Assembly (NCBI GenBank): GCA_009829735.1
Contig: CM020620.1
Span: forward strand, 13,575,420 to 13,639,419
DNA length: 64,000 nt
Reading direction: 5' to 3'
Source: Pyropia yezoensis
Taxonomy: Eukaryota > Rhodophyta > Bangiophyceae > Bangiales > Bangiaceae
Made by a program: the position numbers and the translations under genes. Below are positions 20,909-47,854 of this stretch, one piece after another. The notes below the pieces were generated by a model that was not told where the DNA came from, did no database searches, and saw nothing but the letters and a program-made list of their open reading frames with translations. Within the stretch, counting starts at the first letter, position 1, and each line of letters begins with the position of its first letter.

Positions 20909-21377
20909 TGTGGCAAAAACCACTAGCACACACGGCACCCAAGTTGGGGCGGTGTGCTAGGACTGCCTCCCATGTCGGGGGAACCGGAAGAAGTGCAAGT
21001 CGCACACACTCTGTCCCTGTTGTGGGGCAAACCCCCCACGGACAAACAAGAGGATGGTGTGTGGTCCAACAGTTTCTTCGTCGGGACGGGGACGCAGGGC
21101 CAAGCCGTGCTGTCCCTCCCCTTATCCCCCCAGGGTCCACTCAGAATCTCGCCACTCAGAATCTCCCACCCCAGCACCTGCCCACCGGGCCACACGAAAA
21201 TTCAAGACGATAAATGCAGAAAACCCTCAAATCCAAGTTGGATTTACTACTAAGCTAACTATCCCAAACTTACGGAATATGGACCCAAATGCAGGGGGAG
21301 GAACGGATCAGGCTAGTGGCCTGCCGCCCCTTGCATGGCACGTGTTTCCCCCCTACCTGGGGGTCAATACTGCCACA
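20909..21377 (-). repeat. Element B 3' LTR
   Basis: 469 bp, starts tgtggcaaaaacc and ends tactgccaca on the plus strand. It matches 47386-47854 with five visible substitutions. Confidence 0.93.
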
Positions 21378-21390
21378 CTCCCCTCTCCTC
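21378..21390 (-). other. Polypurine tract of element B
   Basis: The minus strand reads GAGGAGAGGGGAG directly before the 3' LTR, the expected primer for plus-strand DNA synthesis. Confidence 0.75.
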
Positions 21391-21715
21391 AGTTCCGACC
21401 GACCCGGTCGGCCCTGTGAGGGGGTGCGTAAACGCACGTCTCGGCGTTGGGGGCGCGACTTGCTGTCCCCCATCGAGTACGTAACACGGATGTGGAGGCG
21501 GTCACGTTGACCGCCCCTCTCCTCAAGCTTGCCCACTCGGCAGCTTGCTTTCCTCAGTTCACACTTCACCATCACCACCACCTCCCCTTCACCTTCCACT
21601 GGGCCGCCCCACGCTGGGGAGGCCACCCGTATACCCACGATCCGAGTCCCCCTCAACTCGAGGCGGGTCTCGTGCTGCGATAGCCAGAGCGTCTCTCCCA
21701 AACTTGGGGAGAGCC

Positions 21716-23659
21716 ATGGCGACTCCGGGAGTGGAGACGGACTCTCTTGACGAGCGCATGGAGGACACCTCCTACGGGGCAGCACCCGCCGGGACTTCCG
21801 GCGGGGGCTCCGCGATCGCTCCGGGGGACGGGACTCCCGCGTCGCCCGGCTTTGGGTTGACGGCGGGGTCTTCCCCGGAGGCGGGACAAGTTGTCCCGCG
21901 TGAGGCCTTGGGGCGGTGGTTTTACCCCGCTTGGCCTCTCTATGAGGAGGGGCTGACTGTTCTTCGCTGTGGCCGACTTGGCGCAGCGATGGGCCTGGTA
22001 TGGGACCCCCTACGGGAGACGTATCCCCGTAGGGTCGGGTTCCCTGCCGGCTTCAGGACGGACCAGTTTGCCTTCCTGGACGATGAGGAGGTTGAGGACG
22101 TTCAGCGTGCCAAGGCCATGGTGGACCGCGGGGGAACTATCCCGGGTCCCGGCGACTTGCCGACCTTCACGTGGGACGCTGTGGCAACTCGCCCACCGTA
22201 CCTCCACGAGGCCGATCCGCACACTCATCACTTTGATGTGCGGATGGAGAAAGACTTCCGGCGAGGTCCCTACTTGGTGACCTCGGCTCAACTTGAGTTT
22301 CCTCAACAGTCTGCTGCCAGTAAGGAGCAGTACTATCCGAAGAAGCCCGAGTGGTGGCCTCAAGTTGAGGTCCCCTACGGGTTCCCGGCGTTGTTGCCAC
22401 GGTTGCTTGACCACTTCGGCTCCGTCATGTTGACGGCTGCCCCTGATCACCTGGTGTGAGCCATGTTGGCCACCCAGTGGCTCCTCGAGGTCATGTCGAC
22501 CTGGGTGTCCTGTGTTCAGCGGCGGGGGATGCTCTGGCATCTCCCCCTCCGGCTCCTTTAAGGTTTGGAACAGCTCACCCCTCAGCTAGTTGCTGAGGGG
22601 TGCTCATCAGGACAACTCACTCTACTTGAGGAGATGCTCCGGCTCCATAAGTTTATCGAGTGGGAGAGCATTGAGCACAAGTTGCGCCGCCCCACTCGTG
22701 GGCCCGAGGACGATGGCGCACTTCGCCAGTTCGTGTGGGTCGCTCGTGAACTTCACGACGGCCGTGTGGTCCTACGAGAGGGGTTGGGCATCGGGGACTA
22801 CCCGTATGCCCCGGGGGTGGATCGCCACACTGCGCCACCCCCGGACAAGCCCATAGTTATGGCCGTGCCGTCCTATGATGACCATATGACTCAACCCACT
22901 GCGGGGGCCCCAAGTCGGGGTCGCAGTTACACCCGGGTACCGCCACCTCGGCGGGTCCCTCCGCTTCCTCCTGTTCCTTTCCAACCTCACGGTAACATCC
23001 CGATCAGCGTGGCCGTGGCGTCTTCCACCCCGGTGTCCCCCAACTTGGGGGCCACCCTCCTGACGGTATACCCCAATTTGGTGTTGCCGCCCACGCCTCT
23101 AACCTCAGAGATGATGATCACCACGTTGGTGCGCACCATTTCCTGGTTGGCCGCGTCGACCGCAACCCTACAGAATTCCGAGACTCCTCAACTTGAGGAG
23201 CGCGTTCGTACTGCAGTGGCGACCGCGAGTTGCGAGTCGGTGGCGGAGTTTATGACAGCCGAGTTGGCTCGCATTGGGGCTATTATGCCCCAGCCAGCCC
23301 CTTTTGGGAATGGCAAACGTCGCGCGAGCCGGGCCTACTCGCCTCCTCGCCGTCGTCGCCGACACTCGCGGCGCTCTCCTTCCGTATCGGAAGACGAGTT
23401 GTCTTACTCCGTTTCGGAGTCCTCTACCCCGTCGGAGACGGAGTCTGTCCAGCGTCTGCGTCGCAAACTTGCGCGCAATACCAGGCAGAAGAGTGGCCAC
23501 GGTCGGCGCCACTTGCGCGACCGTGAGGGGCGCGACGGTTCCGACTTGGAGCCGCCGCCCCCTCCAACAAGTGGAGACCGTTATCGGCGTGGGTCTCGCC
23601 GCTCGCCTCCACGTGAGGGCGAGGGCCGTGGAGTGGGAGAGTCTAGCATGCGTGCCTAG
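21716..23659 (+). CDS. Antisense ORF of element B (homologous to that of A), two internal stops
   Basis: ATG at 21716 (context gagagccATGG) opens a frame on the strand opposite to gag-pol, between the 3' LTR and the pol end. It is broken by TGA at 22457 and TAA at 22559, then continues in the same frame to TAG at 23659, about 647 codons. Similarity to A's antisense protein spans the stops: PPYL, HFGSV (A: YFGSV), and between the two stops RRGMLWHLP (A: RRQGRLFHLP). The stops thus interrupt conserved coding sequence and are not in an intron. The C-terminal third is Arg/Ser-rich (SPPRRRRRHSRRSPS) followed by Ser/Glu-rich DNA, suggesting a nuclear or nucleic-acid-binding protein. No signal peptide or membrane segment, so it is not an envelope. 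Function unknown. Confidence 0.75.
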
Positions 23660-23770
23660 TTGGTAGCTGCCTTTGTTGTGAGAGTGTGAGGGTTAGGGCT
23701 GTAGTTAAAAGCCACTCTGCGTACCACTTCGACTTGAAGTACTCTCTTGGCACTGTTGCTCGGCCTTCCC
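23660..23770. other. Convergent 3' interval between antisense ORF and pol of element B
   Basis: Only 111 bp separate the stop of the antisense ORF (+) from the TGA of pol (-). Their transcripts must overlap or end here. I see no palindromic array like that of element A. Confidence 0.6.
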
Positions 23771-24449
23771 TCACGTTGAGGGAGGGCTGTTAGGGTCTAT
23801 CTCATTCCGGGCACAGTACGCCCGGACCTTCTCAGCGGGAAGGTCCTCCACATACTCCCACGTATCATCCTTGGCTTTGTAGCCAAACCAACGCACCCTC
23901 AACATGAGGCGGTCAGTGTCTTCATCCCATCCGTGGTCGATGAACTTATCGAACACGTACTCCTGCGGGCCCTGTTTGGCCGCAGGCAGTGAGGGGAGGC
24001 GCCACGCTTCCAAAGCACGCGCCCAAGCTGGGTCGCCTGCAGGCGGTGGTGCAACTTTGACCACGTCCAGTCCGTTCACTGTGCGGACCCCATCGTCACT
24101 TTCGATGGTGAAGCGCCGCCCATCAGTACGAAGGACCTGGTACGGTCCCTTCGTCTGGAATACCAGCTTACCCCCAGTTGGGGTGTGCGAGTGTACCAGC
24201 ACCCAGTCACCCTGCTCGGGGACATGTTTAGCATTGCGTACCTTTTTGTCAAAGGTACGCTTGTAGCGCTTTTGTGCTTTGTCCATCTCAGCCCTGACTT
24301 TAGGGATGAGGTTTTCAAGCCTAGCGGCAAACTCCGCCTTACTCTCAGTAGGAGTAGGCGTACTGCCACCATCCTCCCTAATTGGGAGCGACTGCCGCAC
24401 GGCAATAGACCGCACGCGACGGGGGGTCACAAAAGCGAGGGGTACTTCC
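23771..24449 (-). pseudogene. Element B pol, 3' part: integrase C-terminus and chromodomain
   Basis: This continues the integrase frame cut at 42014. It starts with PLAFVTPRRVRSIAV, passes the basic linker AQKRYKRTFDKKVR and the GDWVLVHSHTP / GPYQVL segment, and ends with a chromodomain-like stretch: YVFDKFIDHG, then LRVRWFGYKAKDDTWEYVEDL, and a final helix. Chromodomains guide chromovirus integration to marked chromatin. It ends in TGA at 23771. The element A insertion at 24450 separates it from the rest of pol. Confidence 0.88.
24445..24449. repeat. Target-site duplication of element A, left copy (cttcc)
   Basis: cttcc precedes the left LTR and follows the right LTR at 42014-42018. The uninterrupted sequence in the related fragment at 560-590 has a single cttcc (as ggaag). 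Confidence 0.95.
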
Positions 24450-24812
24450 TGTAGCACAATAGGGATCCGTCGCGCGTCCACTCTCAGGGAACACTCACCA
24501 AGGGGGATCGGCACCAACGTCACCGGGAGGCCAAGGTTGCTGTCCTTGGAGCGCAAGCCACGGGACCAAGATGGGAGCCCAAATGGGAGGGGTTTGTTGT
24601 TCTACCTTGGCCGGCGGTGGATTCGCCACCGGCCCCCTCGTTATAAACCCTCGGAGACACTACTAACTACCCTCCACCCCAAGATGCAAGTCCCTCTGGT
24701 CATACGTAACTTATAGATACCGTGACCAGCTCGGACTCTCAAATTGGAAGTTAAGGATTAGATGTAGCCCCCCTAATATTAGGGTCACAATACGGACAAC
24801 CATATTGCTACA
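24450..24812 (-). repeat. Element A 3' LTR
   Basis: 363 bp, matching 41651-42013 with one difference (gattagatg versus gattagaag). It contains gttataaac near 24638, a TATA-like word that reads as TATAAA on the plus strand and TTTATAAC on the minus strand. Confidence 0.95.
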
Positions 24813-24826
24813 TATCCCCCCCTTAG
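24813..24826 (-). other. Polypurine tract of element A
   Basis: The minus strand reads AAGGGGGGGATA immediately before the 3' LTR. Confidence 0.75.
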
Positions 24827-25399
24827 ATTCGGCCCGTCCTCGGGTCGAGTTGCATTCGGGTTACCGAATGTAAGTGGGTCGCGTGACTGTTTACCCGTCG
24901 GGTGGGGCTTTGCGCCCCGTCGCGACAGACACCCCTTTTCGAGGTTGTCCGAGGGGGGTGCCCCCCTTTGTGTGGTACACACACACGATCCGTTTTCCGG
25001 ACCGTTAAATTCCCGATGCGGGTTGCGGTTCACGCCCCTCCTTTCCGCGGGGGGGTGCAAGCGGATCCGCCACCAGGTGCCTGGTGGTAGGGGGGCCCCT
25101 CTCGTGTGGACGATTGAGTGGGGGGCGGGGGCTGCCCGCGTTGCGTGGGGGCGGTTGGGGGTGACCCCCCTTACTTACCCCGTGTGTGGGTGTGGCCCCG
25201 TCCCGCCCAGGTGCCTGGGTGGAGCGCGGTCGTAGCCCCGTGGGGCGCGGGTCGACCCGCGTGCCTGCGGCGCTTCTCGTGGCCGTTTGTGGTCATAAGC
25301 GCGGGTGTCCGCGCTTCCCTGGCTCGTCCCGGTTATCCCACCGTTCCGGGTTGTAGCCGTCGACGGCTTGTGGGCGCGGGGGACTCCGCACCCGTTATC
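24827..25399 (+). other. Leader of the antisense ORF of element A
   Basis: About 570 bp of GC-rich DNA between the polypurine tract and the antisense ATG. The frame is open in its later part but lacks an ATG. It would form the 5' untranslated part of a plus-strand transcript starting in or near the LTR. Confidence 0.4.
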
Positions 25400-27847
25400 A
25401 TGTCCTATCCCCAGGTGCTTGAAGAGGAGGAAGACCTCCTGATCGGGGAGGAGATGGAGGACGACGCGCCTGTCGGTCCCGACGCCGCGCGTTACGGGGT
25501 GAGCTCGTCTGACGACGACGGGCCTGCGGTGTCCGTCCGTCTGTCGGCCGGAGGACTGTCGTCCGTGTGCAGCGGCACGACGGTGCCGTCGGCCGGAGGT
25601 CAACCCGGCGGTCAACCGCGCGTGGCGGCTTCTACCCCCTCTCTGCCGGCTACCCGGATGGAGCCTGGTGCCGGTGCCGGCTCACCGCAGCTACCTCAAG
25701 ATGGTCCGCCCTGCGGCGGAGGTGGCGACCCGCAGCCGACTCCGGCTGGTCAAGGTGGTCCGGGTGTCCGGGCGGTGACTCCTCGAGGCGGTCCCGACGT
25801 TGACGCGGGTGGTGGTGGCGGTGCGACACCCGGTGCGGTGGGTCAAGACGGTGCGGGTGTCCGCACGGCCGGGGCTCCGGCTCCGGAGGCTGTCCAAGTG
25901 CCTTCCACTTCCGAGGCGGGGGCTACGCCGACGGGTGGTGCCGGCGCCGGTACCATACCTGCGGTGCCGCGGGTGTCGAGCGGTCAAGACGCTCCTTCTC
26001 CCATGGCGGTTGACACCGGGAGTTACTCCGGGCGGGCGCCCGCCCTTCTTCTTCCTCCTCTGCCTCGTCCATCTCCGACGTCGGCCCCTCTGCCGGTGGT
26101 GCGTCCCCCGGCGCCCCCGATTCTTCCTGGTCCTGCCCGGGTTGCCCCGTTGGGTGGCGGCGTCGCCGTGGCGGCGGGTCAACCCGCCATGTCGGTGTCC
26201 GACTTGGTGGCTCGGGTTTGAGGCCTCACGGTGCAAGAGTCGATGGAGTCCGATGGGCGTATGCGGGTGGACTTCCACCTGGTGCATCCCCGTGGAGAAT
26301 CCTCCCGGCGCGTCAAGGTGGACCCGTGCTGGGAGCGGGAGTTGGTGCGGCTGGTCAACCAGCCGAACGCGGTCCGGGTGGAACACCATTGGATCCTGAG
26401 TCAGCCGGACGACCGGCATGCGCAGCTCTGGCGCACCCGGGTGGGACGGGGTGAGGTCTACCTCGACCCCAACTTCGGGGTCTGCGACCTGATTGCCCCC
26501 GCGTTGCCGCGGGAGATTGACTACCCGGCTAGTGCTCGGGGGATTGCGGCGGCGGCGGAGCCGGTTGCGTTTGGGGAGACGGTGAGCCGTACCGGTCGGT
26601 ATCCCGACTTTGACTACTACCCGGGGGTACCCCCGTATCTGTCGTTGACGGCTCCCTACCCGCCCATGGCGGGGTTGAAGTCGGCGTCGAGTTGGCGACG
26701 TAACCATGGTGTCATGGCGGATGCGTTCCGCACGGATATAACGTGTGCGTTGCAGACCGGCAACGGTCGTGCTCCGGTATACACTCCCGTGCGCCCGCCG
26801 CTATGGCAGGAGGGGTGGGAACCCGCCCCTGCTTTCCGGTTTGACACCGGCTCCTGCCTCCGATACTTCGGGAGTGTGTTGGCCTCCCGGCCGGTCCACC
26901 CGTTGCAGGGTACCTTCACCCTTGAGGTTACCCTCGGGCAGGCTTCATCCTTCTTACTGTCCGTCCGCCGGCAGGGTCGTCTGTTTCATCTTCCGACGGG
27001 TGTCCGTCGGCACATCGCGCAGTTGGGCGTGGATCTGATAGCCGCCAAGACCGGGTTGGCCCGGGAGTTCGAAGCCCTGCTGGCTGTTCACGATGCCGTG
27101 AACTGGGCTGGGGTGTTGGCCCTTCCCCCGTACCGGGACCCGCAGGCTGGGGCTTCCCCCTTGCCTCGTCACTCGTTGCGTGTCCGGCGTACTCAGCCGG
27201 GTGAGCCTAGTTGCCATGGGTGGGCGTCCACCGAGGCCGTTCCTGACCTGGGTATTCCCATGGTTATCCATGACCCTCTTCAGGTCCTTGCTCCGTGGTT
27301 CGGTAACCCGATGCCGGCGGCGGTTGGCCGTCGTCCCCGAGAGTGGGGCTCTGTGGGTGGGGAGCGTGAGGTGTCCCGTCGTCGGGCGGAGTACCGCCGT
27401 GGTTACGGTGGAGCCCCTTCGGTAGGGTCCTACCGGGCCTCGTATCAGGTGCCACCGGCTCCGGTGGTAGCCGTGTCGGCTCCTGTGGCTCCTCTGGCTG
27501 CGCCAGTGTCACCTCCCGCTCCTGTCCTACATGACGGGGGTCCCCGTCTCTGGTATGAAGGCGTTGACGCCCTTGTTACCCGCGCAATGCGTGGGGGTCT
27601 CTCTGTTAGCTGGGGGGATATCCCCCCAGGTGCTGCGCTGGTTGGGTCAGCGCGTTGCCTCGGTGGCGTGCTGGACCGCCTCCAGAAAGCTCTGGAGGAC
27701 GTGGAGGCTGGCCGCAGCACCCTCGTCCAGCTATGCACCGAGGTAACTCGGGTGGTCGACCGTCGTGACATTGCCGACCGGTGGAGCACGGAGGTATACG
27801 CGCTTACGCGTGAGTGGCCTCCCTCGGGCAGTGGGTCTACCCACTGA
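25400..27847 (+). CDS. Antisense ORF of element A, one internal TGA
   Basis: ATG at 25400 starts an acidic N-terminus (EEEEDLLIGEEMEDD) followed by a Pro/Ala/Gly-rich spacer. One TGA at 26219-26221 interrupts the frame, which resumes in the same phase to the TGA at 27845-27847 (about 815 codons). The second part has a structured core: WERELVRLVNQ, YPDFDYYPGVPPYL, GLKSASSWRRNHGVMAD, YFGSV and RRQGRLFHLP. Then come a Val/Pro/Ala linker and a C-terminal helix (RLQKALEDVEAG). PPYL, YFGSV and R.GRLFHLP recur in element B, and the GLKSASSW region in the fragment at 293-505. It lies between pol and the 3' LTR on the opposite strand. No membrane segment, zinc finger or enzyme motif is visible. The TGA lies in the variable region and could be a lesion or a recoded codon. 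Confidence 0.78.
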
Positions 27848-28057
27848 GGAGTGCTATTTGTTTGTGAGGGAGAGGGTCCCGGCAACCCTTATGGTAGCCG
27901 GGTAGTAGTGAGTATAAACTCATCCCCCGCTGGGGGCATTGCTTGCCTCTGTTTGCTGCCCTGGGGAGTACCCCTTCTGGCTCAGTGGTGCCTTGCCTCC
28001 CGCCCAACTTCTTCCGGTTGGTTCATGCTTGGGGAGGTTATCCTCCCTCACTTTGTC
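27848..28057. other. 3' flank of the antisense ORF of element A
   Basis: No ORF. Contains two related words, ggttatcctccc and ggtcatcctccc, each in a cttggggagg context. Part of the convergent interval between antisense ORF and pol. Confidence 0.4.
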
Positions 28058-28391: not shown

Positions 28392-31300
28392 TTACCAGGT
28401 GGGTGAGTCGTATCCGACCCACATAACCTTGACGTACCAGGGTCCTGGTATGTCCGGGTCGGTGTGTCCGACCACGCTCTCTACTTGGTATGGAATCCCA
28501 TCCGGTCCCACCGGGTCATCCGACCGGTGGGTTGTAAGAGCTTCATGTAGCGACCCAGCCGGTACCGGCTGAGGCTGTTCCGGCTTCGGAGCAGGTGTGA
28601 CATCATTCATACTGATGCGTTGGATCTCCGTATCGGAGTGTAAGATAACAGAGTGGTTATCTCTGTGGAGGATCTGGTACGGTCCCTTGACCGGTTGCAT
28701 AAGCTTGTTCCCTCGGAACTTCTGGTGTCTGATATAGACCCAGTCACCTGTTACCAGGGTTGCGTTGCGCACCCGTAGTCGGGCGTCGAAGTTCTTCTTA
28801 TATCGAAGTTGTGTTCTGTCAAGGGCACCCTTGAGCTTAGGAATCATCCACGATAGCTTGGCCAACCAAGCTAGGTGGATGCGTTCGGCGGGTCGGCCCT
28901 TCGGTGTATCATACCGAGTGCACCTGCCTGGCGGCAGCGTCAGGTTACCGACGCCTAGTGGCATGACCCACTCCAGCGGAGCAATGTTTGTGCTCCGATG
29001 TGGCCTGGCATTGTATGCCAGGGTGAGTACGGACAGAAGCCTGTCCCAAGTGTTCGTGTGCTCGGCCACGTAGCACTGTAGCATCTTTACGATGGTGCGG
29101 TTGAACCGCTCCACCTGCCCATTGGACTGCGGGTGGTAGTCGGATGCCCGACGTGGTTCGATACCGAACATGCCCAGGACCTTAGTGCAGAATGCCGACG
29201 TAAGGTTTGCTCCGTTATCGGAGAGGAGTTGCTTCATGACTCCGTATGCACTGATCCAGTGGTCAACCACTGCGTTCATGATCGTGTATGCCGTATCATT
29301 CGGGATGGCTGCCGCTCGTGACAGCTTGGTGAATCGGTCAGACATGACCAGGATGTACCTGTTCCCTTCTTCCGTTATCGGAAGTGGCCCGAGTATGTCG
29401 ATAGCGACTTGCTCGTTGGGCCCATCGGGTGGGAATAGCTTCATGGCAGACGCCTGCCTATGTAGACTCATTCGGTTACGCGCACAGGGGTGGCATCCCC
29501 TTACGTGGTCGACCACGTCGACGGCCATTGCTGGCCAGTAGAAGAACCTTCGCATTGCTGCGAACATACGTGAACCCCCCGGGTGTCCGGCTGTAGGGTT
29601 CTCATGTTCTCGTTCCATGACGGCTTGCCGTAAGGACACGGGAACCACGACTTGATGTCGTCCATCGGCGGGTGCCCGCCGGTATATGAGTCCGTCTTCG
29701 TTCTCGGAGAAGATGCCGGCCGTACCGGCCAGGAGGTTAGCACGATGACGTCTACAGTCATCGTCGTTGGCCTGTGCCTCGCGGAAGTCCGCGAGGGTCA
29801 GTGGGCATGCTCGGTGTGCCATGGTATGGTCAGCCATACCCTGGGTAGCATTACCCACCATGCACACCGGTACTACCGGGATGTCCTCGTCCACCGGGCG
29901 GGTATCCCCGCTCGGGGTGTCGAGTCGAGACAACGCGTCTCCGAGGTGGTGGGTTGACCCAGCCTTATACACCGTGCGGTAGTCGTGCTCGGCCACCTTC
30001 AGCCTCCATCGGGCTAGCCTCCCATGGCTATCGGAATCCTTGTCACCAAGGTTGAGGAGCCATCGTAGGGGTTCGTGGTCGGACCTCACGATGAACTTGG
30101 AGCCCTCCAGGTATGGACGGAGCAGTTGCACTGCCCATATAACTCCGAGGCATTCACGCTCGGTGGCACTATAGTTCCGCTCAGCCGGGTTGAGTGTCCG
30201 GCTGAAGTACCCTACCGGACGTAGGTCCGGGATAACGTTATCGGTACCGATCAACGTCTCTCCCTGTAACAGGGTGCATCCCACTTGTGTATCACACGCA
30301 TCGACATCGATGACGAAGGTACCCCGTCTATGCGGTAACGCAAGGACGGGTGGGGCTAGTAGGGCTCGCTTCAGCGACTCGAATGCCTCATCTTCGCTAG
30401 GCGAAGGGGGTTGGAGTACCTTGGGTAGGGTACTGCTCGTAAGAACCGTTAACGGTTTAGCTATCCGAGCGAAGTCCTTGACGAACCGTCGGTATACATT
30501 GCACATTCCCAGGAAGCTCTTGAGCTGCGTCTGGGTGTTAGGGAACCGGGCATCCCGGAGTGCCCGGGTATTGGATTCGAGTACCCCTAGTTTACCAGGT
30601 GTTATCTGGTGGCCCAGATATTCGACCGTCTGTTGGAAGAAGGCGCACTTCTTCAGACGCAGGGTTACCCCGGCGTTCCTCAAGAGGGTGAGTACCTCGT
30701 CAACATGTTGTACATGGTCATCCATGTTACGCGAGAAGACGATGACGTCATCGAGGTACACTAGGCAGTTACGCCACTTCACCCCGACAGTATGATGTCG
30801 ATAGCCCGCTGGAATGTAGCGGGGGCGTTGGACAATCCGAAGGGCATCCTTAGGAACTCGTACACTCCACTGTGACAGACGAATGCCGTCTTGGGGATAT
30901 CCTCGTCCGCCACCGGGATCTGCCAGTATCCGGCATTGCAGTCGATGGTGGTAAACACCGTAGCCTCCCCCAGGGAGTCGATGCATTCATCCATCCTTGG
31001 TAAAGGGTATGAGTCCTTCTTGGTAACCAAGTTGAGGCGTCGATAATCGATGCAAAACCGAGGGGTTTGATCCTTCTTCGGCACAATAACGACTGGGGCA
31101 CCCCATTCCGACATCGAAGGTCGGATCACCTTAGCTTCACTCATCCTCTTCACTTCTCCATCAACGATCTCTCGTTGCATAGGTCCCGCTCGGTGCGGTT
31201 GTGAGCAGGCGGGTCGTGCGCCTGGTACCAGGTCTATACGATGTTGGGTTGCCCCAATGGTCCCCAAGGCCCCGCCTGTCCACATAACGTCATGCTTTCT

Positions 31301-32494
31301 TAGCATCCGTCGTACCCCTTCGGCTACCGAAGGGGGAAGGTGGTCGAGGTCAGCCTCGGCCAGTGCCTTCAAGGCCTCTTGGTCCTTTGGCGGCAGGTCC
31401 GCCGGAGCCGCCGATGGGTTAGGCTTCCCGTCATCGGGTTGCTGTCGCTCGGTGGTCTCGGCGACCGCCAGTACTTCAAGTGGTTCCACTTGACCTTCCT
31501 TATCAGGGGTAAGGATATCTCCTTCGTAGAGTTCGGCAATCCCGAGGATAGTTCCCTTCGGGAGGGTGACTGCCTTACGGCGGTAGTTCGCCATCACTAG
31601 GAGGGACGACCCTTCTGCTGGGAGGTCTATGAGACCGTTGGCCATGGTCAACCCATGGCGCTTGTACGTCCGTAGGTTGGACTGGACTCTGCAGATGCCT
31701 GCGAGGTCGCAGTTAACCGGGAGGACTGTCTCTGACAACGGCTCAAAGCGAGTCCGCTTGGCCAACCGAAGTGTCTTCGGCTCGACGCTTGCGTACACCT
31801 CAGCCACGTTAACGTGGCTTCCTTGCAGCGTCAGGTCCCTGACGATAGCCGTGTGTCCTCGCTTCGTCCCGTCGGCTTCTTGAAGCTCGACGGTCCTCCG
31901 GCCTGGCCGGATTGCATCAACGTGAACGTTGATGAAGGTGCACCCCAGTATGCAGGGCACCGATAGCGTTTCACATACCAGGAAGTCAACTTCCGTGGTG
32001 AGGTCCCCGATGGTAACCTGCAGCGACATCGCTGCGGTCGTACGAATGAGTCGACCATTCGCGTCCTTGATGGTGGGTCCCCGAGTCACTCTGACTCGTG
32101 GAAGCCACTTGTCCGGGAGGGTATCCTTCCGGATAAGGTTGGGTCCAGCCCCTGTGTCCAGTACAGGGTAGTACGATCGTGTCGACTGGGGGTCAACCCC
32201 CAGTGTGGCTGATACCTTGAAGTTCTCCAAGGTAAACAACACATGTCCTACACCGATATCCGGTGTAGCTCGGGCATCCTGAACAGGGCCCTTGTCTGGT
32301 TCAACGTGAAGGGGCTTCCCGTCCTCTCCTCCCAACCTCGGGGGTTGGTCATCAATCCCCTGACGCCGTGTCGTCGGGGCCGGAAGGTGTACCCGGGGGT
32401 TGATGCGGCGTCGGCTCAACCGCGCTCTCCGTGGGGCTTTCCCCGCGGTACTCCGGGGTGGCTTGCTTGGGTGACCCCAGCGCCCCCCGGTCAT
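28392..32494 (-). pseudogene. Element A pol, block 1 (frameshifted by an indel)
   Basis: Same polyprotein as 35132-39233. One base is missing near 30781 (cacttcaccccgacag here, five C in the other block), splitting the frame inside RT just before YLDD. The 3' end is intact here: VKVMWVGYDSPTW then TAA at 28392-28394. These residues are the second half of a chromodomain, and the TAA falls where Glu-Pro normally follows the Trp. The frame stays open beyond it for about 23 more codons (AANIPRQLLMPYMRRRRLL), matching the usual C-terminal helix. Confidence 0.85.
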
Positions 32495-34296: not shown

Positions 34297-34796
34297 NNNN
34301 NNNNNNNNNNNNNNNNNNNNNNNNNNNNNNNNNNNNNNNNNNNNNNNNNNNNNNNNNNNNNNNNNNNNNNNNNNNNNNNNNNNNNNNNNNNNNNNNNNNN
34401 NNNNNNNNNNNNNNNNNNNNNNNNNNNNNNNNNNNNNNNNNNNNNNNNNNNNNNNNNNNNNNNNNNNNNNNNNNNNNNNNNNNNNNNNNNNNNNNNNNNN
34501 NNNNNNNNNNNNNNNNNNNNNNNNNNNNNNNNNNNNNNNNNNNNNNNNNNNNNNNNNNNNNNNNNNNNNNNNNNNNNNNNNNNNNNNNNNNNNNNNNNNN
34601 NNNNNNNNNNNNNNNNNNNNNNNNNNNNNNNNNNNNNNNNNNNNNNNNNNNNNNNNNNNNNNNNNNNNNNNNNNNNNNNNNNNNNNNNNNNNNNNNNNNN
34701 NNNNNNNNNNNNNNNNNNNNNNNNNNNNNNNNNNNNNNNNNNNNNNNNNNNNNNNNNNNNNNNNNNNNNNNNNNNNNNNNNNNNNNNNNNNNNNNN
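34297..34796. other. Assembly gap, exactly 500 N
   Basis: The round length marks a scaffolding placeholder, not a measured gap. Sequence immediately left equals 41039 and sequence immediately right equals 28058, so the flanking contigs overlap each other by about 6.2 kb. Confidence 0.97.
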
Positions 34797-35075
34797 TCTT
34801 GGCTTGGGGAGGTCATCCTCCCGTGTAAGCTCCCTAGTTACTTCGATATTATCGGAGTTAGCCTTTACCTTTAAGTTAACTTATTTAAGGTTCAGGTTTT
34901 TACTTAGTTACCTAAGCTTAGCTCTACTTAGTTACCTAAGCTTGGTTCGACTTAGAAAACCTATGTCTGATTTGACTTAGAAACCTAAGTCTGCCGTAAC
35001 CATGTCACACCCTACTTAGTAGGTATAAGCCTCACCCCCCAACAGCCGAAGTCGGTGTCGGTTGGGTTGTTACAG
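34797..35075. repeat. Palindromic repeat region after pol of element A, block 2
   Basis: Copy of 28058-28335 with single-base indels (for example tattt for tatt, and one extra A in a cttagaaaacc unit). Confidence 0.8.
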
Positions 35076-35131
35076 GGGCGTCGTCGCCTCATGTACGGCA
35101 TGAGGAGTTGGCGGGGTATATTCGCCGCCTG

Positions 35132-38100
35132 TTACCAGGTGGGTGAGTCGTATCCGACCCACATAACTTGACGTACCAGGGTCCTGGTATGTCCGGGTCG
35201 GTGTGTCCGACCACGCTCTCTACTTGGTATGGAATCCCATCCGGTCCCACCGGGTCATCCGACCGGTGGGTTGTAAGAGCTTCATGTAGCGACCCAGCCG
35301 GTACCGGCTGAGGCTGTTCCGGCTTCGGAGCAGGTGTGACATCATTCATACTGATGCGTTGGATCTCCGTATCGGAGTGTAAGATAACAGAGTGGTTATC
35401 TCTGTGGAGGATCTGGTACGGTCCCTTGACCGGTTGCATAAGCTTGTTCCCTCGGAACTTCTGGTGTCTGATATAGACCCAGTCACCTGTTACCAGGGTT
35501 GCGTTGCGCACCCGTAGTCGGGCGTCGAAGTTCTTCTTATATCGAAGTTGTGTTCTGTCAAGGGCACCCTTGAGCTTAGGAATCATCCACGATAGCTTGG
35601 CCAACCAGCTAGGTGGATGCGTTCGGCGGGTCGGCCCTTCGGTGTATCATACCGAGTGCACCTGCCTGGCGGCAGCGTCAGGTTACCGACGCCTAGTGGC
35701 ATGACCCACTCCAGCGGAGCAATGTTTGTGCTCCGATGTGGCCTGGCATTGTATGCCAGGGTGAGTACGGACAGAAGCCTGTCCCAAGTGTTCGTGTGCT
35801 CGGCCACGTAGCACTGTAGCATCTTTACGATGGTGCGGTTGAACCGCTCCACCTGCCCATTGGACTGCGGGTGGTAGTCGGATGCCCGACGTGGTTCGAT
35901 ACCGAACATGCCCAGGACCTTAGTGCAGAATGCCGACGTAAGGTTTGCTCCGTTATCGGAGAGGAGTTGCTTCATGACTCCGTATGCACTGATCCAGTGG
36001 TCAACCACTGCGTTCATGATCGTGTATGCCGTATCATTCGGGATGGCTGCCGCTCGTGACAGCTTGGTGAATCGGTCAGACATGACCAGGATGTACCTGT
36101 TCCCTTCTTCCGTTATCGGAAGTGGCCCGAGTATGTCGATAGCGACTTGCTCGTTGGGCCCATCGGGTGGGAATAGCTTCATGGCAGACGCCTGCCTATG
36201 TAGACTCATTCGGTTACGCGCACAGGGGTGGCATCCCCTTACGTGGTCGACCACGTCGACGGCCATTGCTGGCCAGTAGAAGAACCTTCGCATTGCTGCG
36301 AACATACGTGAACCCCCCGGGTGTCCGGCTGTAGGGTTCTCATGTTCTCGTTCCATGACGGCTTGCCGTAAGGACACGGGAACCACGACTTGATGTCGTC
36401 CATCGGCGGGTGCCCGCCGGTATATGAGTCCGTCTTCGTTCTCGGAGAAGATGCCGGCCGTACCGGCCAGGAGGTTAGCACGATGACGTCTACAGTCATC
36501 GTCGTTGGCCTGTGCCTCGCGGAAGTCCGCGAGGGTCAGTGGGCATGCTCGGTGTGCCATGGTATGGTCAGCCATACCCTGGGTAGCATTACCCACCATG
36601 CACACCGGTACTACCGGGATGTCCTCGTCCACCGGGCGGGTATCCCCGCTCGGGGTGTCGAGTCGAGACAACGCGTCTCCGAGGTGGTGGGTTGACCCAG
36701 CCTTATACACCGTGCGGTAGTCGTGCTCGGCCACCTTCAGCCTCCATCGGGCTAGCCTCCCATGGCTATCGGAATCCTTGTCACCAAGGTTGAGGAGCCA
36801 TCGTAGGGGTTCGTGGTCGGACCTCACGATGAACTTGGAGCCCTCCAGGTATGGACGGAGCAGTTGCACTGCCCATATAACTCCGAGGCATTCACGCTCG
36901 GTGGCACTATAGTTCCGCTCAGCCGGGTTGAGTGTCCGGCTGAAGTACCCTACCGGACGTAGGTCCGGGATAACGTTATCGGTACCGATCAACGTCTCTC
37001 CCTGTAACAGGGTGCATCCCACTTGTGTATCACACGCATCGACATCGATGACGAAGGTACCCCGTCTATGCGGTAACGCAAGGACGGGTGGGGCTAGTAG
37101 GGCTCGCTTCAGCGACTCGAATGCCTCATCTTCGCTAGGCGAAGGGGGTTGGAGTACCTTGGGTAGGGTACTGCTCGTAAGAACCGTTAACGGTTTAGCT
37201 ATCCGAGCGAAGTCCTTGACGAACCGTCGGTATACATTGCACATTCCCAGGAAGCTCTTGAGCTGCGTCTGGGTGTTAGGGAACCGGGCATCCCGGAGTG
37301 CCCGGGTATTGGATTCGAGTACCCCTAGTTTACCAGGTGTTATCTGGTGGCCCAGATATTCGACCGTCTGTTGGAAGAAGGCGCACTTCTTCAGACGCAG
37401 GGTTACCCCGGCGTTCCTCAAGAGGGTGAGTACCTCGTCAACATGTTGTACATGGTCATCCATGTTACGCGAGAAGACGATGACGTCATCGAGGTACACT
37501 AGGCAGTTACGCCACTTCACCCCCGACAGTATGATGTCGATAGCCCGCTGGAATGTAGCGGGGGCGTTGGACAATCCGAAGGGCATCCTTAGGAACTCGT
37601 ACACTCCACTGTGACAGACGAATGCCGTCTTGGGGATATCCTCGTCCGCCACCGGGATCTGCCAGTATCCGGCATTGCAGTCGATGGTGGTAAACACCGT
37701 AGCCTCCCCCAGGGAGTCGATGCATTCATCCATCCTTGGTAAAGGGTATGAGTCCTTCTTGGTAACCAAGTTGAGGCGTCGATAATCGATGCAAAACCGA
37801 GGGGTTTGATCCTTCTTCGGCACAATAACGACTGGGGCACCCCATTCCGACATCGAAGGTCGGATCACCTTAGCTTCACTCATCCTCTTCACTTCTCCAT
37901 CAACGATCTCTCGTTGCATAGGTCCCGCTCGGTGCGGTTGTGAGCAGGCGGGTCGTGCGCCTGGTACCAGGTCTATACGATGTTGGGTTGCCCCAATGGT
38001 CCCCAAGGCCCCGCCTGTCCACATAACGTCATGCTTTCTTAGCATCCGTCGTACCCCTTCGGCTACCGAAGGGGGAAGGTGGTCGAGGTCAGCCTCGGCC

Positions 38101-39233
38101 AGTGCCTTCAAGGCCTCTTGGTCCTTTGGCGGCAGGTCCGCCGGAGCCGCCGATGGGTTAGGCTTCCCGTCATCGGGTTGCTGTCGCTCGGTGGTCTCGG
38201 CGACCGCCAGTACTTCAAGTGGTTCCACTTGACCTTCCTTATCAGGGGTAAGGATATCTCCTTCGTAGAGTTCGGCAATCCCGAGGATAGTTCCCTTCGG
38301 GAGGGTGACTGCCTTACGGCGGTAGTTCGCCATCACTAGGAGGGACGACCCTTCTGCTGGGAGGTCTATGAGACCGTTGGCCATGGTCAACCCATGGCGC
38401 TTGTACGTCCGTAGGTTGGACTGGACTCTGCAGATGCCTGCGAGGTCGCAGTTAACCGGGAGGACTGTCTCTGACAACGGCTCAAAGCGAGTCCGCTTGG
38501 CCAACCGAAGTGTCTTCGGCTCGACGCTTGCGTACACCTCAGCCACGTTAACGTGGCTTCCTTGCAGCGTCAGGTCCCTGACGATAGCCGTGTGTCCTCG
38601 CTTCGTCCCGTCGGCTTCTTGAAGCTCGACGGTCCTCCGGCCTGGCCGGATTGCATCAACGTGAACGTTGATGAAGGTGCACCCCAGTATGCAGGGCACC
38701 GATAGCGTTTCACATACCAGGAAGTCAACTTCCGTGGTGAGGTCCCCGATGGTAACCTGCAGCGACATCGCTGCGGTCGTACGAATGAGTCGACCATTCG
38801 CGTCCTTGATGGTGGGTCCCCGAGTCACTCTGACTCGTGGAAGCCACTTGTCCGGGAGGGTATCCTTCCGGATAAGGTTGGGTCCAGCCCCTGTGTCCAG
38901 TACAGGGTAGTACGATCGTGTCGACTGGGGGTCAACCCCCAGTGTGGCTGATACCTTGAAGTTCTCCAAGGTAAACAACACATGTCCTACACCGATATCC
39001 GGTGTAGCTCGGGCATCCTGAACAGGGCCCTTGTCTGGTTCAACGTGAAGGGGCTTCCCGTCCTCTCCTCCCAACCTCGGGGGTTGGTCATCAATCCCCT
39101 GACGCCGTGTCGTCGGGGCCGGAAGGTGTACCCGGGGGTTGATGCGGCGTCGGCTCAACCGCGCTCTCCGTGGGGCTTTCCCCGCGGTACTCCGGGGTGG
39201 CTTGCTTGGGTGACCCCAGCGCCCCCCGGTCAT
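35132..39233 (-). CDS. Element A pol polyprotein, block 2
   Basis: ATG at 39233. Protease active site VLDTGAG at residues 113-116. RT has CIDYRRLN, the IDCNAGYWQIP segment and YLDD at 580-583. RNase H starts near 727 (FVIDVDACD) with the DALSRL end near 853. The integrase zinc finger is H964, H971, C1001, C1004, and the catalytic triad is D1033, D1093, E1129 with the expected 35-residue D-E spacing. One base missing at about 35605 breaks the frame after integrase. Beyond it, the GDWVYIRHQ / GPYQIL domain and a chromodomain half continue in another frame, and a second missing base near 35167 breaks the end. Block 1 is intact at both places. Canonical residues throughout suggest a recently active element. 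Confidence 0.9.
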
Positions 39234-39241
39234 CCTTCCTC

Positions 39242-41425
39242 TTACTCGTTTCCCGCCCTTGGTAGGGTGCTGTCCGCCGGGACATCCGGCTGAGGAGGTG
39301 CCCCCTCGACGGCCAGTACTCCACCTGGAGCTGGCTGCCTACCCGGTGCGGGTCCGGGTGCTCGGGCGGGATACCCCCCGGTGGATGCCTTGCGTTGCGC
39401 CGCTGCCCGCCGAGACTCCTCGGGGATGAGTGGGCAGGAAGACACCCAGTGCTGGGGATCCCCACACAACATACATCCGGACGTGCCGGTCCCCCCTTGA
39501 GGTCGCATCGGGGTAGCCCCGTAGCTACGGTTGCCTCCCTCGGGCGCCCGAGTGCCTGCTCCCTGGTAGGCCTTGGGTCCTTGGGTCAACCGGAACATGG
39601 ACTCCCCCAACCGGTTGGGTCGGCCCGCAATCTGCGGGGGTGCCTCCGTGCGCACCGCCCATGTTGGCAAGGGTTGGTGAGGGTTACCCGTCACCGGGGA
39701 GTACCCCGTAGTCCGCACATACGGGACGCGCCGTCCCGTTCCTTCGTTGACCTGGAACTGGGTTCCAGCCGGGGCGATGTACGCTACCGTACCATGTTCA
39801 TCAATCACCGGCGTCGCCGGTAGCAACAGGTGGCCCTGTTGGTCGACCAGAGGGTCACCCTCACCAATAGGGGTATGTTCGGTCGCCACCAGTACTGGTG
39901 CGGCCTTACGTTCCACCTTCTCTTGCCTCGGTACCGGGGTAAGACTGGGCTTGCCTCCCTCACCCTTGGGCTTCGGGGCCAAGGCACACTCCGGGTGTAG
40001 AACCCGGTAGGCGTCCCCTAGGGACTTGCACATATGCATCAGTCGACTGAAGTTCGTCCGTGCCGTGTTGGCGCCCCGTGCGGATATCCGCACGTAGTTG
40101 GGTACTCCTGCGAACAGGATGGCCCGTAGCTCCCCTTCTCCGAGGAGCTTCCCCAGCTCGTAGTCGAGCTCTTGGATCCGGCGTCCAAACATCTCCTCAT
40201 CCTCCCAGGACTGGGCGGTGGCAGTGCGAAGGGCCCGATAGTGGTCCTCGCACTTGTCCTCACTGAGGTAGCTGCTCAGCAGCTCCTTCAATATCCCACG
40301 GTAATCCATGGGGGTGGCCGCGACCCTCATTCCCGGCATCGGGGATGCCTGGCGAAGAATGCCTCGCACCCGTTCATCAACAAAGAACGGGAGGATCTCC
40401 AGGGCCAGCCCCTCGTTAACGAGCGCCTTGTCTGCGGCTGCCTTGAAGCTAGTCAAGAAGCCGATGACTGCCAACGGGCGTCCGTTCGGCCCCCCGAACA
40501 TAGGGACTCCCTTCATAAGGGTCTGCATAGAGCGGATCGCCCGATGCGACGTATTACGCATCGATTCCGATACGGTGGTAGAGCGGTCCTCCAAACGATA
40601 ACGTTCCGGAGTAAGAACCGACCGGAAGACCTCGTTGACGATCTCCGTGTCAGCGTCCTGGATATCCAGTCGCTTAGCCAGTTGATGAGCGAACTCATCG
40701 GACTCCATCCGCTTCAGTAGGCTCGCAGTTACCTGCGCGGTCATAGCTTCCACCACTGAAGATGGTACTTCAGGCGTCGGCACCTCGGGAACCCGAGTTG
40801 CCTGGCCTCCTTCGTCGTGGGGGTACTGCGAGAGGGTACCTCCTCCCCCAATAACCGACTCTCCCCCGGCGTACGTATCCGCCGGGTCGTGTCCGCGGAG
40901 TCCGCTTCGGGTGCTCCGAGCGTATCGCTCCGTGTGACTCCGTTCCAACTCTGCCGACGAGTCGGACCCATACCCCATTGTGTCCGGGGGTTGTCCAGGA
41001 GTAGCAACACCGGGGTTGACCCTGGTGGACTCCGAAAGTAGTCCGGCCGGTTCGAACCGTACCGGTGTGGGAGGAACACGACGGGGTCCCGTCGTGTGCC
41101 GTGTTGACATCAACACTGCCATTGCGTCCTCCGTCCGATCTTGACGGGCGTCGAGCCCGGAAAACCGGGCCTCGATGCGGGCCAATGATGCCATCAGGGA
41201 ATCCCCTGGTGAAGGAGGCGGCGGAGTGAGGTCGGTCGACGACAGTTGAGGCGGGCCCCCGCCTCCTGCCGTCCGAGCCGTGCCAAACGTCGATCCGGCA
41301 CCGGAAAGCATTGGCGTCTCAATGTTATCGATCGGGTTCCCGATCCCGGTTCCCGTAGTCACCTCCGGGGTCGGCGTCGACGCCGATCCGTCATCTTGAA
41401 CGTTCCCCGTCTCTTGGGTAGACAT
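39242..41425 (-). CDS. Element A gag
   Basis: ATG at 41425; the frame is open two codons further. About 727 residues: a disordered Thr/Pro-rich N-terminus, then a capsid-like helical region (about 230-470: SSVVEAMTAQ, then LTSFKAAADKALVNEG, SYLSEDKCEDHYRAL, ANTARTNFSRLMHMC). A zinc knuckle CMLCGDPQHWVSSC (C-x2-C-x4-H-x4-C) lies near 665. It forms the particle and packages element RNA. It ends in TAA, eight bases before the pol ATG in a different frame, so pol must be made by reinitiation, frameshift or a separate message. Confidence 0.9.
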   Translation of the reverse strand: MSTQETGNVQDDGSASTPTPEVTTGTGIGNPIDNIETPMLSGAGSTFGTARTAGGGGPPQLSSTDLTPPPPSPGDSLMASLARIEARFSGLDARQDRTEDAMAVLMSTRHTTGPRRVPPTPVRFEPAGLLSESTRVNPGVATPGQPPDTMGYGSDSSAELERSHTERYARSTRSGLRGHDPADTYAGGESVIGGGGTLSQYPHDEGGQATRVPEVPTPEVPSSVVEAMTAQVTASLLKRMESDEFAHQLAKRLDIQDADTEIVNEVFRSVLTPERYRLEDRSTTVSESMRNTSHRAIRSMQTLMKGVPMFGGPNGRPLAVIGFLTSFKAAADKALVNEGLALEILPFFVDERVRGILRQASPMPGMRVAATPMDYRGILKELLSSYLSEDKCEDHYRALRTATAQSWEDEEMFGRRIQELDYELGKLLGEGELRAILFAGVPNYVRISARGANTARTNFSRLMHMCKSLGDAYRVLHPECALAPKPKGEGGKPSLTPVPRQEKVERKAAPVLVATEHTPIGEGDPLVDQQGHLLLPATPVIDEHGTVAYIAPAGTQFQVNEGTGRRVPYVRTTGYSPVTGNPHQPLPTWAVRTEAPPQIAGRPNRLGESMFRLTQGPKAYQGAGTRAPEGGNRSYGATPMRPQGGTGTSGCMLCGDPQHWVSSCPLIPEESRRAAAQRKASTGGYPARAPGPAPGRQPAPGGVLAVEGAPPQPDVPADSTLPRAGNE

Positions 41426-41631
41426 GGTCACAATCAGTCAACCGACGTATCAATCACCACGAACAAGAGAGCGAGGGGATAGATTGGGGAGAGTAACAGT
41501 AGATCACAGTCACAGGTAAAATCTCAACACAATCGATCAGGTCGCAACACCACGAGTACAAGAAAAGGACCGGATCCCTATCCGTGCGCCAGGGCCGAAG
41601 ACGGCGTCACCACAAGGGTGACGGAAACCCG
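41426..41631 (-). other. Element A leader between primer site and gag
   Basis: About 200 bp with no ORF; a likely 5' UTR and packaging region. Confidence 0.5.
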
Positions 41632-41649
41632 TCCCCTGCTGCTCCACCA
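41632..41649 (-). other. Primer-binding site of element A
   Basis: The minus strand reads TGGTGGAGCAGCAGGGGA one base inside the 5' LTR. Its complement fits a tRNA 3' end: 5-nt T-stem strand CCCTG, acceptor strand CTGCTCC, A73, CCA. Identical to the site in element B. Confidence 0.8.
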
Positions 41650-41650
41650 A

Positions 41651-42013
41651 TGTAGCACAATAGGGATCCGTCGCGCGTCCACTCTCAGGGAACACTCACC
41701 AAGGGGGATCGGCACCAACGTCACCGGGAGGCCAAGGTTGCTGTCCTTGGAGCGCAAGCCACGGGACCAAGATGGGAGCCCAAATGGGAGGGGTTTGTTG
41801 TTCTACCTTGGCCGGCGGTGGATTCGCCACCGGCCCCCTCGTTATAAACCCTCGGAGACACTACTAACTACCCTCCACCCCAAGATGCAAGTCCCTCTGG
41901 TCATACGTAACTTATAGATACCGTGACCAGCTCGGACTCTCAAATTGGAAGTTAAGGATTAGAAGTAGCCCCCCTAATATTAGGGTCACAATACGGACAA
42001 CCATATTGCTACA
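41651..42013 (-). repeat. Element A 5' LTR
   Basis: 363 bp, one difference from 24450-24812. Carries the same gttataaac TATA-like word near 41839. Confidence 0.95.
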
Positions 42014-42018
42014 CTTCC
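42014..42018. repeat. Target-site duplication of element A, right copy (cttcc)
   Basis: Repeats 24445-24449. Confidence 0.95.
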
Positions 42019-45000: not shown

Positions 45001-45323
45001 TCAGCTTTGGACCTCCAGCGTTGGAGCTTCACCTCCTTTGGTAATAGCGACTTGCGTATCAGGGAGGCTCCTGACCCAGCATCAAGTACGATACGGGTAC
45101 AGCATGCACGGCCGGGGGCAAGTTGCACCCGTCCAGCCACCTGGAAGGTCTCACCCGTCAGCACCGCGATGACCCGACGTGGGTTTACGTTCTTGGGGAG
45201 TCCTACCCGAGGTGGGCGGACTCCCTTAGGTCGCCGCAGTATCCGGCACGGTTTGTTCGTCCTCCTGGGCCACTTGGCCGAGGCTGCCGTTGTGAGCTTC
45301 GGACGACCAGCCCCAACGGTCAT
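42014..45323 (-). pseudogene. Element B pol, 5' part: protease, RT, RNase H, integrase core
   Basis: ATG at 45323 overlaps the gag stop as ATGA. Protease reads VLDAGSGAS at 79-87, with Ala for the Thr/Ser of the catalytic D-T/S-G. RT has CIDYRKLN, the LDCNAGYWQIP segment and CLDD at 524-527, with Cys for the Tyr of Y-x-D-D. RNase H starts near 671 (YILDVDAS) and ends near HALADGLSR. Integrase zinc ligands are H896, N903 (normally His), C933 and C936; the triad D965, D1025, E1061 is intact with 35-residue spacing. The frame has no stop over 1,100 codons, yet three hallmark residues are changed. It is cut after HSSTGEV by element A. Confidence 0.9.
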
Positions 45324-47266: not shown

Positions 47267-47365
47267 GTTGGCTGACGATCCGTATGACACCGTCCAAGAC
47301 CACCGCTCCTCTGAGACAGAGGGCCCCCTACACCCGGGTGCACCCGGAGGTAAAGTGTACCTCTA

Positions 47366-47383
47366 TCCCCTGCTGCTCCACCA
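47366..47383 (-). other. Primer-binding site of element B
   Basis: TGGTGGAGCAGCAGGGGA on the minus strand, two bases inside the 5' LTR, the same 18 bases as in element A. Complementarity may extend a few bases further (TAGAG). Confidence 0.8.
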
Positions 47384-47385: not shown

Positions 47386-47854
47386 TGTGGCAAAAACCAC
47401 TAGCACACACGGCACCCAAGTTGGGGCGGTGTGCTAGGACTGCCTCCCATGTCGGGGGAACCGGAAGAAGTGCAAGTCGCACACACTCTGTCCCTGTTGT
47501 CGGGCAAGCCCCCCACGGACAAACAAGAGGATGGTGTGTGGTCCAACAGTTTCTTCGTCGGGACGGGGACGCAGGGCCAAGCCCCGCTGTCCCTCCCCTT
47601 ATCCCCCCAGGGTCCACTCAGAATCTCTCCACTCAGAATCTCCCACCCCAGCACCTGCCCACCGGGCCACACGAAAATTCAAGACGATAAATGCAGAAAA
47701 CCCTCAAATCCAAGTTGGATTTACTACTAAGCTAACTATCCCAAACTTACGGAATATGGACCCAAATGCAGGGGGAGGAACGGATCAGGCTAGTGGCCTG
47801 CCGCCCCTTGCATGGCACGTGTTTCCCCCCTACCTGGGGGTCAATACTGCCACA
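47386..47854 (-). repeat. Element B 5' LTR
   Basis: 469 bp, same ends as 20909-21377. Confidence 0.93.

What the first reader, a model, noticed from the sequence alone, without database searches (positions are those of the whole stretch)
21716..27847. Two retrotransposon families share a homologous protein encoded on the antisense strand
Seen: elements A (25400-27847) and B (21716-23659) each have a long plus-strand frame between pol and the 3' LTR, opposite to gag-pol. The products share PPYL, a [YH]FGSV block, and RR.G.L[FW]HLP, in the same order and with similar spacing. Known: additional antisense ORFs have been described in some plant Ty3/gypsy elements, with unknown function. Inference: an ambisense chromovirus lineage carrying a conserved non-gag-pol protein, not known to me from this kind of organism. 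It lacks membrane segments, so it is not an envelope; the B version has an Arg/Ser tail suggesting nuclear or RNA-related work.
Basis: partly seen in the sequence, partly recalled or inferred. Interest (0 to 1): 0.92.

Follow-up and report, generated by a model that had tools for sequence, protein, structure and literature searches.

The report
Conserved antisense gene in seaweed retrotransposons
Two very common families of jumping genes in what appears to be the nori seaweed genome carry, on the strand opposite to their usual genes, a related extra protein gene that evolution has kept intact; what the protein does is not known.

Summary
The window lies in a 107 Mb genome whose scaffold sizes match the published red alga Pyropia yezoensis. 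A and B are Ty3/gypsy-type LTR elements with 5-bp target duplications and one primer-binding site; A is inserted in B. Each carries, between pol and the 3' LTR, a long frame on the opposite strand. Both window copies are broken (A one in-frame stop, B two), but intact copies exist. Intact products are homologous: 24% over 230 aa, E=5e-11, 52 bits against at most 27 for 2000 shuffles. They diverge as gag does (24.5%; pol 40%). Substitutions show selection on the protein: A subfamilies dN/dS 0.26-0.45 in 27 of 28 pairs; B copies pN/pS 0.11. No Pfam family and no plant TRP28 match. The named relatives found are all Pyropia vietnamensis. An accessory, nucleic-acid-binding role, as proposed for other antisense genes of LTR elements, is my best guess; transcript, fold and function are untested (structure prediction failed). 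The class is known in plants and a fungal element; this protein family and host group look new.

The parts
20909..21377 (-). 3' LTR of element B (TGTGGCA...TGCCACA, 469 bp)
   Evidence: 98.9% identical to 47386-47854
21378..21392 (-). polypurine tract of B next to its 3' LTR (AGGAGAGGGGAG in the gag-pol sense)
   Evidence: sequence read
21716..23659 (+). antisense gene of B (647 aa in intact copies; two in-frame stops here, 22457 and 22559)
21998..22672 (+). part of the B antisense protein homologous to A (residues 95-319)
   Evidence: BLASTP; profile comparison
23771..24449 (-). 3' end of B pol (integrase C-terminus, chromodomain-like end)
24445..24449 (.). 5-bp target duplication of A (CTTCC), repeated at 42014-42018
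   Evidence: sequence read; looked 7 bases too far right on the second side and printed another pentamer
24450..24812 (-). 3' LTR of element A (TGTAGCA...TGCTACA, 363 bp)
   Evidence: ends read; 99.2% over 370 aligned bases to the other LTR
24813..24826 (-). polypurine tract of A next to its 3' LTR
   Evidence: sequence read
25400..27847 (+). antisense gene of A (815 aa from ATG in intact copies, 909 aa stop to stop; one in-frame stop here, 26219)
26480..27115 (+). part of the A antisense protein homologous to B (residues 361-572)
   Evidence: BLASTP
28392..32494 (-). A pol (protease, RT, RNase H, integrase), frame broken in this copy; one 1417-aa frame in L037
32352..33854 (-). A gag, 3' part of the gene, with a CCHC-like motif (first copy)
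34297..34796 (.). assembly gap of 500 N
34797..41039 (-). repeat of 28058-34296 (99.8%), probably a contig-overlap duplicate of the same A copy
   Evidence: the reading as an artefact is inference
39242..41431 (-). A gag, whole open frame (729 aa)
41633..41649 (-). primer-binding site of A (TGGTGGAGCAGCAGGGG in the gag-pol sense)
   Evidence: sequence read
41651..42013 (-). 5' LTR of A
42014..45323 (-). B pol, 5' part (continues at 24449 across the A insertion)
45320..47290 (-). B gag (CCHC zinc knuckle, found in the L041 copy)
47367..47383 (-). primer-binding site of B, same sequence as in A
   Evidence: sequence read
47386..47854 (-). 5' LTR of B; target duplication GGCGT at 20904-20908 and 47855-47859

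Best explanation
A and B belong to one lineage of Ty3/gypsy-type LTR retrotransposons of Pyropia that carries a third, protein-coding gene facing gag-pol. It lies tail to tail with pol (111 bp between the stops in B, about 480 in A) and starts about 340 (B) and 590 bp (A) inward of the 3' LTR. SHOWN: the gene is inside the element, has many intact copies, is homologous between the two families, diverges about as far as gag, and is under purifying selection as protein. INFERRED: it is read from a promoter in or near the 3' LTR as a separate antisense mRNA; the product, which has an acidic N-terminus, a conserved core and arginine-rich stretches after the core, is an accessory protein that binds nucleic acid in the nucleus and controls or aids expression or trafficking of the element's own RNA or cDNA, as proposed for antisense genes of plant elements and known (recalled) for HTLV-1 HBZ. 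My split: conserved protein-coding gene 0.95; separate antisense mRNA 0.8; nuclear nucleic-acid-binding accessory role 0.45.
For: Anatomy in copies L033, L037, L038 (A) and L041, L044 (B). Homology. Selection: A subfamilies dN/dS 0.26-0.45 in 27 of 28 pairs, core 0.12-0.30 in 15 of 15 pairs tested; seven B copies pN/pS 0.114 over 21 pairs, against 0.167 for the integrase C-terminus of the same copies; frame control. Divergence as in gag: gag 24.5% over 220 aa, aORF 24.3% over 230 aa, pol 40% over 1405 aa. No membrane segment; B pI 9.1 with Arg/Ser tail. Seven relatives annotated in P. vietnamensis. Analogy: PMC7264820 and PMC11963269 (passages and sections seen).
Against: No transcript or protein evidence was available. 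No domain of known activity was found. The Arg-rich stretches lie outside the aligned core and A's overall charge is neutral (pI 7.0). No structure could be predicted. The profile comparison of A family against B gives only 85% probability; B has little diversity (2 sequences). One nearly identical A pair has dN/dS 1.1 (dS 0.023).
Confidence: 0.5

Rival explanations
1. The protein is a structural or RNP partner (a second gag-like or packaging factor) that joins particles or the pre-integration complex, rather than a regulator.
For: Order of parts as in many gags: low-complexity N-terminus, conserved core, basic stretches (by eye); divergence as in gag; a deletion derivative that lost most of gag and pol still carries it.
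Against: No similarity to the elements' own gag in a profile comparison (hhalign probability 0.2%). A packaging protein made from the opposite strand would need its own expression timing (inference).
Confidence: 0.25
2. What matters is the antisense RNA (double-stranded RNA, silencing, transcriptional interference); the open frame is incidental.
For: Antisense transcripts of retroelements can act as RNA (PMC7264820, passages seen). High G+C favours long open frames on several strands.
Against: Protein-level constraint and freedom from stops in this frame alone; protein homology of A and B with no significant DNA similarity.
Confidence: 0.08
3. A host gene or a gene of another mobile element or virus captured in the ancestor of both families.
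For: It shows no likeness to gag, and the origin of such ORFs is open (PMC11963269 discussion, seen). It concerns origin and is compatible with the best explanation.
Against: No relative with a name from outside Pyropia among 13 distinct protein hits, 6 of which are unnamed; none in viral contigs; no Pfam family.
Confidence: 0.15
4. An envelope-like gene in the reverse orientation.
For: It lies at the env position between pol and the 3' LTR.
Against: Opposite strand and no membrane segment in three proteins tested.
Confidence: 0.02

Closest known systems
Antisense additional ORFs between pol and 3' LTR (aORF-3R) of plant LTR elements: maize Grande gene23, rice RIRE2, Silene Retand, Phaseolus PvRetro13; fungal Boty (PMC7264820, passages seen)
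   Same: Place and orientation, presence in most copies, conservation like that of other element proteins, no clear similarity to other proteins.
   Different: Red algal host; no match to the plant TRP28 domain; chromodomain-like pol end in B. Homology to the other aORF-3R proteins was not tested, for want of their sequences.
Retand elements with the TRP28 domain, PF04195 (PMC11963269: abstract, section 11 part 1 and section 12 seen)
   Same: Long pol-3'LTR region with an antisense gene; clusters lacking gag or other domains keep it.
   Different: No PF04195 match in the whole genome at E<=10 or in 18 family members; Retand is described there as a non-chromovirus lineage found in Eudicotyledons and Liliopsida only.
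HTLV-1 HBZ, antisense gene read from the 3' LTR (recalled; an antisense promoter in the HTLV 3' LTR is mentioned in PMC7264820)
   Same: Antisense gene at the 3' end of an LTR element, facing gag-pol.
   Different: No homology tested or claimed; HBZ is a bZIP factor (recalled); the function here is unknown.
Chromoviruses (chromodomain-bearing Ty3/gypsy elements)
   Same: Pol order and a chromodomain-like C-terminus in B.
   Different: No RT phylogeny made here. Print is divided on red algae: a 2012 survey found no retrotransposon chromodomain in the Porphyra yezoensis data of that time (PMC3350952, passage), while an abstract says that chromoviruses occur in red algae (PMC3605345, listing).

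Membership tests
aORF-3R class (antisense ORF between pol and 3' LTR) | LTR element with gag-pol on one strand | tested here: met
   LTRs, target duplications, PBS, PPT, gag and pol domains
aORF-3R class (antisense ORF between pol and 3' LTR) | ORF between pol and 3' LTR on the opposite strand | tested here: met
   window and copies L033, L037, L038, L041, L044
aORF-3R class (antisense ORF between pol and 3' LTR) | ORF kept in many copies with protein-level conservation | tested here: met
   the fraction of all copies is not known because the lists are capped
aORF-3R class (antisense ORF between pol and 3' LTR) | antisense transcript | not testable with these tools
   no RNA data held
Retand / TRP28 | PF04195 domain in the antisense product | tested here: not met
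Chromovirus | chromodomain at the C-terminus of integrase | tested here: inconclusive
   B: Pfam Chromo E=1.5e-4 and 0.001, both under the curated cut-off; A: none at E<=0.1, though the A and B pol alignment reaches the C-terminal ends
Chromovirus | reverse transcriptase within the chromovirus clade | not tested
   no reference sequences at hand
Ty3/gypsy | domain order PR-RT-RH-IN | tested here: met
   (protease matches are weak: E 1.4e-5 in A, 0.056 in B)
Envelope-like gene | membrane segment; sense orientation | tested here: not met

The most novel reading that the evidence does not exclude
An old ambisense retroelement lineage in which the antisense protein is needed by each element itself: a 5-kb B derivative that has lost most of gag and pol (junction in at least 40 places) still carries it, open in at least 15 of those 40, and has exchanged that segment with full-length elements, as if copies without a working antisense gene were not amplified.
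Probability: 0.2. Interest if true: 0.8.

Novelty: new variant of a known kind. Interest (0 to 1): 0.6.

Why it matters
Antisense genes of LTR elements have been described mainly in flowering plants, with unknown function (PMC7264820). A second protein family with no detected likeness to TRP28, in the same place, in red algae, with gag-like depth and clear selection, would mean that such genes arose or survived more than once and do something useful for the element. Nearly half of this genome is repeats, mostly LTR elements (PMC7423979, passage), and the gene is present in hundreds of listed places. The 5-kb derivative may offer a natural test of what the gene is for.

Tried and rejected
Direct BLASTP of the broken window frames: not significant (best E=0.15); replaced by intact copies. 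Pfam: on 18 family members only DUF6214 (best E 0.014) and SH3_16 (0.059), on the B window piece DUF641 (0.18), all under the cut-offs and rejected. PDB sequence search: nothing at E<=1 for A or B. TRP28: none. Own gag as the source: none. Viral contigs: 74 pattern places, no relative. Primer tRNA: no tRNA gene in the window; not identified.

Withdrawn reading: aORF pN/pS among deletion derivatives is 0.09, but the remnants beside it differ by only pS 0.0075 and the aORF segment is a mosaic of two types. The low ratio therefore reflects the parents and does not prove selection inside the derivative. The derivative was also found through the aORF, so derivatives without it would have been missed. 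The other deletion, that of L010/L039, is single (1 full match of 40 listed).

Corrected count: the B selection test used ten entries, of which two copies were entered twice (L041 = L012, L040 = L011) and one (L016 = L043) is a deletion copy. One search repeats it with seven distinct copies: 0.114 instead of 0.112, integrase end 0.167 instead of 0.178. Of these seven only L041 and L044 were seen over their whole length. Rows first left out of the A test: of ten stretches, five were used; L049 (open over 644 aa, dropped because one motif letter differs) and L053 (444 aa) were added; L046, L047, L048 have broken frames and were not used. With them 27 of 28 pairs give 0.26-0.45; the pair L049-L054, nearly identical, gives 1.1.

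Target duplications elsewhere: equal in L044 and in derivatives L042, L055, L057, L058; different in L041; not equal at the boundaries used in L056.

Print: ten searches showed, among the rows listed, no title or abstract start about antisense genes in red algal retrotransposons. Some lists were cut (for example 15 of 22 and 8 of 46), and the library holds open-licence papers only. In the Ectocarpus TE paper the passages seen mention antisense small RNAs only.
Full report
WHERE IT IS. The window is 13575420-13639419 of a 29.4 Mb contig in a genome of 107,475,971 bases with three large contigs of 43.6, 34.3 and 29.4 Mb. The Pyropia yezoensis paper gives scaffolds of 29.4, 34.3 and 43.6 Mb and 65% G+C (PMC7423979, passages seen). 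I take the organism to be this cultivated red alga, so I observed copies only.

ANATOMY. B runs from 20909 to 47854 and is interrupted by A (24450-42013). B copies elsewhere run through that place (L041, L044). LTR ends, target duplications (B: GGCGT; A: CTTCC), primer-binding site and polypurine tracts were read directly (B). For A the right-hand LTR ends at 42013 and the duplication is at 42014-42018; one search looked 7 bases further right and printed another pentamer there. Both elements have the same primer-binding sequence beside the 5' LTR. This fixes the gag-pol sense as the minus strand, so the plus-strand frames are antisense. In L041 and L044 gag (678 aa) and pol (1380 aa) are open, stop to stop, and the aORF (724 and 780 aa) faces them; in L037 pol is 1417 aa and the aORF 909 aa. 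The 6.2 kb present on both sides of the N gap looks like a contig overlap.

THE FRAMES. In the window A has one internal stop and B two. In the genome they are mostly open among the listed best places: 78 of 80 without a stop in the aligned 538 aa for A and, by my hand count of that table, 71 of 80 with an open frame of at least 815 aa, one of these with an internal stop; 110 of 112 and 148 of 150 for the two B pieces. The lists are capped and favour intact copies.

HOMOLOGY OF A AND B. Intact products: 24.3% over 230 aa, E=4.7e-11 for the single comparison; 52.4 bits, while of 2000 shuffled B proteins 546 gave any match and the best had 27.3 bits. A third subfamily (L050) against B: E=1e-8. 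Profile of A family against B: E=5.9e-6, probability 85%. HMM of 17 A-type sequences against 2585 targets: B at E=3.4e-5, next other target 0.27. There is no significant DNA similarity between the regions (best blastn E=0.11). Between A and B gag is 24.5% identical over 220 aa and pol 40% over 1405 aa, so the antisense protein differs about as much as gag, as expected if all three were inherited together.

SELECTION. With a P. vietnamensis protein as query, 87 more distant A-type places were listed; ten were fetched. Five of them with L001 gave 15 pairs with dN/dS 0.26-0.45 over the whole (dS 0.13-1.43) and 0.12-0.30 in the core. Adding L049 and L053 gives 13 more pairs, 12 of them at 0.26-0.37 and one, nearly identical (dS 0.023), at 1.1; the other three fetched stretches have broken frames. 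Of six frames only this one is free of stops, and its pN/pS is lowest in 5 of 5 pairs tested; the opposite-strand shadow frame comes second. Seven distinct B copies give pN/pS 0.114 (21 pairs), compared with 0.167 in the integrase C-terminus of the same copies; most of these copies were chosen among best aORF hits, and this replaces a first count that held duplicates.

SPREAD. Three searches of 5.8 billion proteins gave 3, 1 and 12 hits, 13 distinct proteins; seven are P. vietnamensis hypothetical proteins, the other six are unnamed. Each search scored only the 8000 candidates sharing most words. In its own genome another distant query lists 126 of 126 places without a stop in the C-terminal part. 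No Pfam family, no PDB relative, no TRP28 in the genome, none in viral contigs.

A DERIVATIVE WITHOUT MOST OF GAG-POL. A 5.02-kb form of B carries both LTRs, a leader with the start of gag (about 80% identical to that of L041), small pol remnants and the whole aORF; five copies were read (L042, L055, L056, L057, L058) and four have the aORF open, one a frameshift. A sixth copy with the same inner junction, L018, has another outer junction and a broken aORF. The inner junction occurs in at least 40 places on all three chromosomes (list cap 40). Matching their positions to the aORF lists: 15 open, 4 damaged, plus L057 damaged, and 20 not in the capped lists; for six of the 15 the list covers only a part of the protein and openness rests on the 724-aa frame reported. 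Remnants are nearly alike among the five copies (pS 0.0075), but the aORF segment is of two types, one like the autonomous elements, with the change near the 3' end of the aORF: recombination, and no proof of selection within the derivative.

HOW IT MAY WORK. See best explanation. The protein-coding nature is shown by selection and homology. The separate antisense mRNA and the nuclear accessory role are inferred from the arrangement, the lack of membrane segments, the arginine-rich stretches after the core in both families and from analogy with plant elements, where one product (Grande) is nuclear and its gene has its own upstream promoter (PMC7264820, passages seen).

WHAT IS KNOWN. Antisense ORFs in this place are an established class, so the kind is known. 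New here, as far as the searches named above show: the host group, the protein family, its depth between two families with gag-like divergence, and its retention in a multicopy derivative.

Noticed in passing
L042:4685-9702, L055:151-5167, L056, L057, L058: Multicopy 5-kb non-autonomous derivative of B that keeps the antisense gene but only remnants of gag and pol; its aORF segment is a recombinant of two types.
   Followed up: partly
window 115-585: Minus-strand fragment of a further A-type antisense gene, 48% identical to A, near the window edge.
   Followed up: no
window 28058-41039: 6.2 kb present twice (99.8%) on both sides of a 500-N gap, probably a contig-overlap artefact.
   Followed up: partly
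window 41633-41649 and 47367-47383: A and B share one primer-binding site (TGGTGGAGCAGCAGGGG), not the usual initiator-Met type (recalled); the primer tRNA was not identified.
   Followed up: partly
window 14913-15896: Plus-strand frame of 327 aa that by eye looks like a SET-domain protein.
   Followed up: no
window 17811-19508: Plus-strand frame of 565 aa with a very acidic repeat part and, by eye, BRCT-like stretches.
   Followed up: no
window 4059-6035: Minus-strand frame of 658 aa with a P-loop-like GPSGSGKT motif, unidentified.
   Followed up: no
window 13978-14764 and 54941-55785: Tandem repeats in G+C-rich sequence, the first inside long frames on both strands.
   Followed up: no
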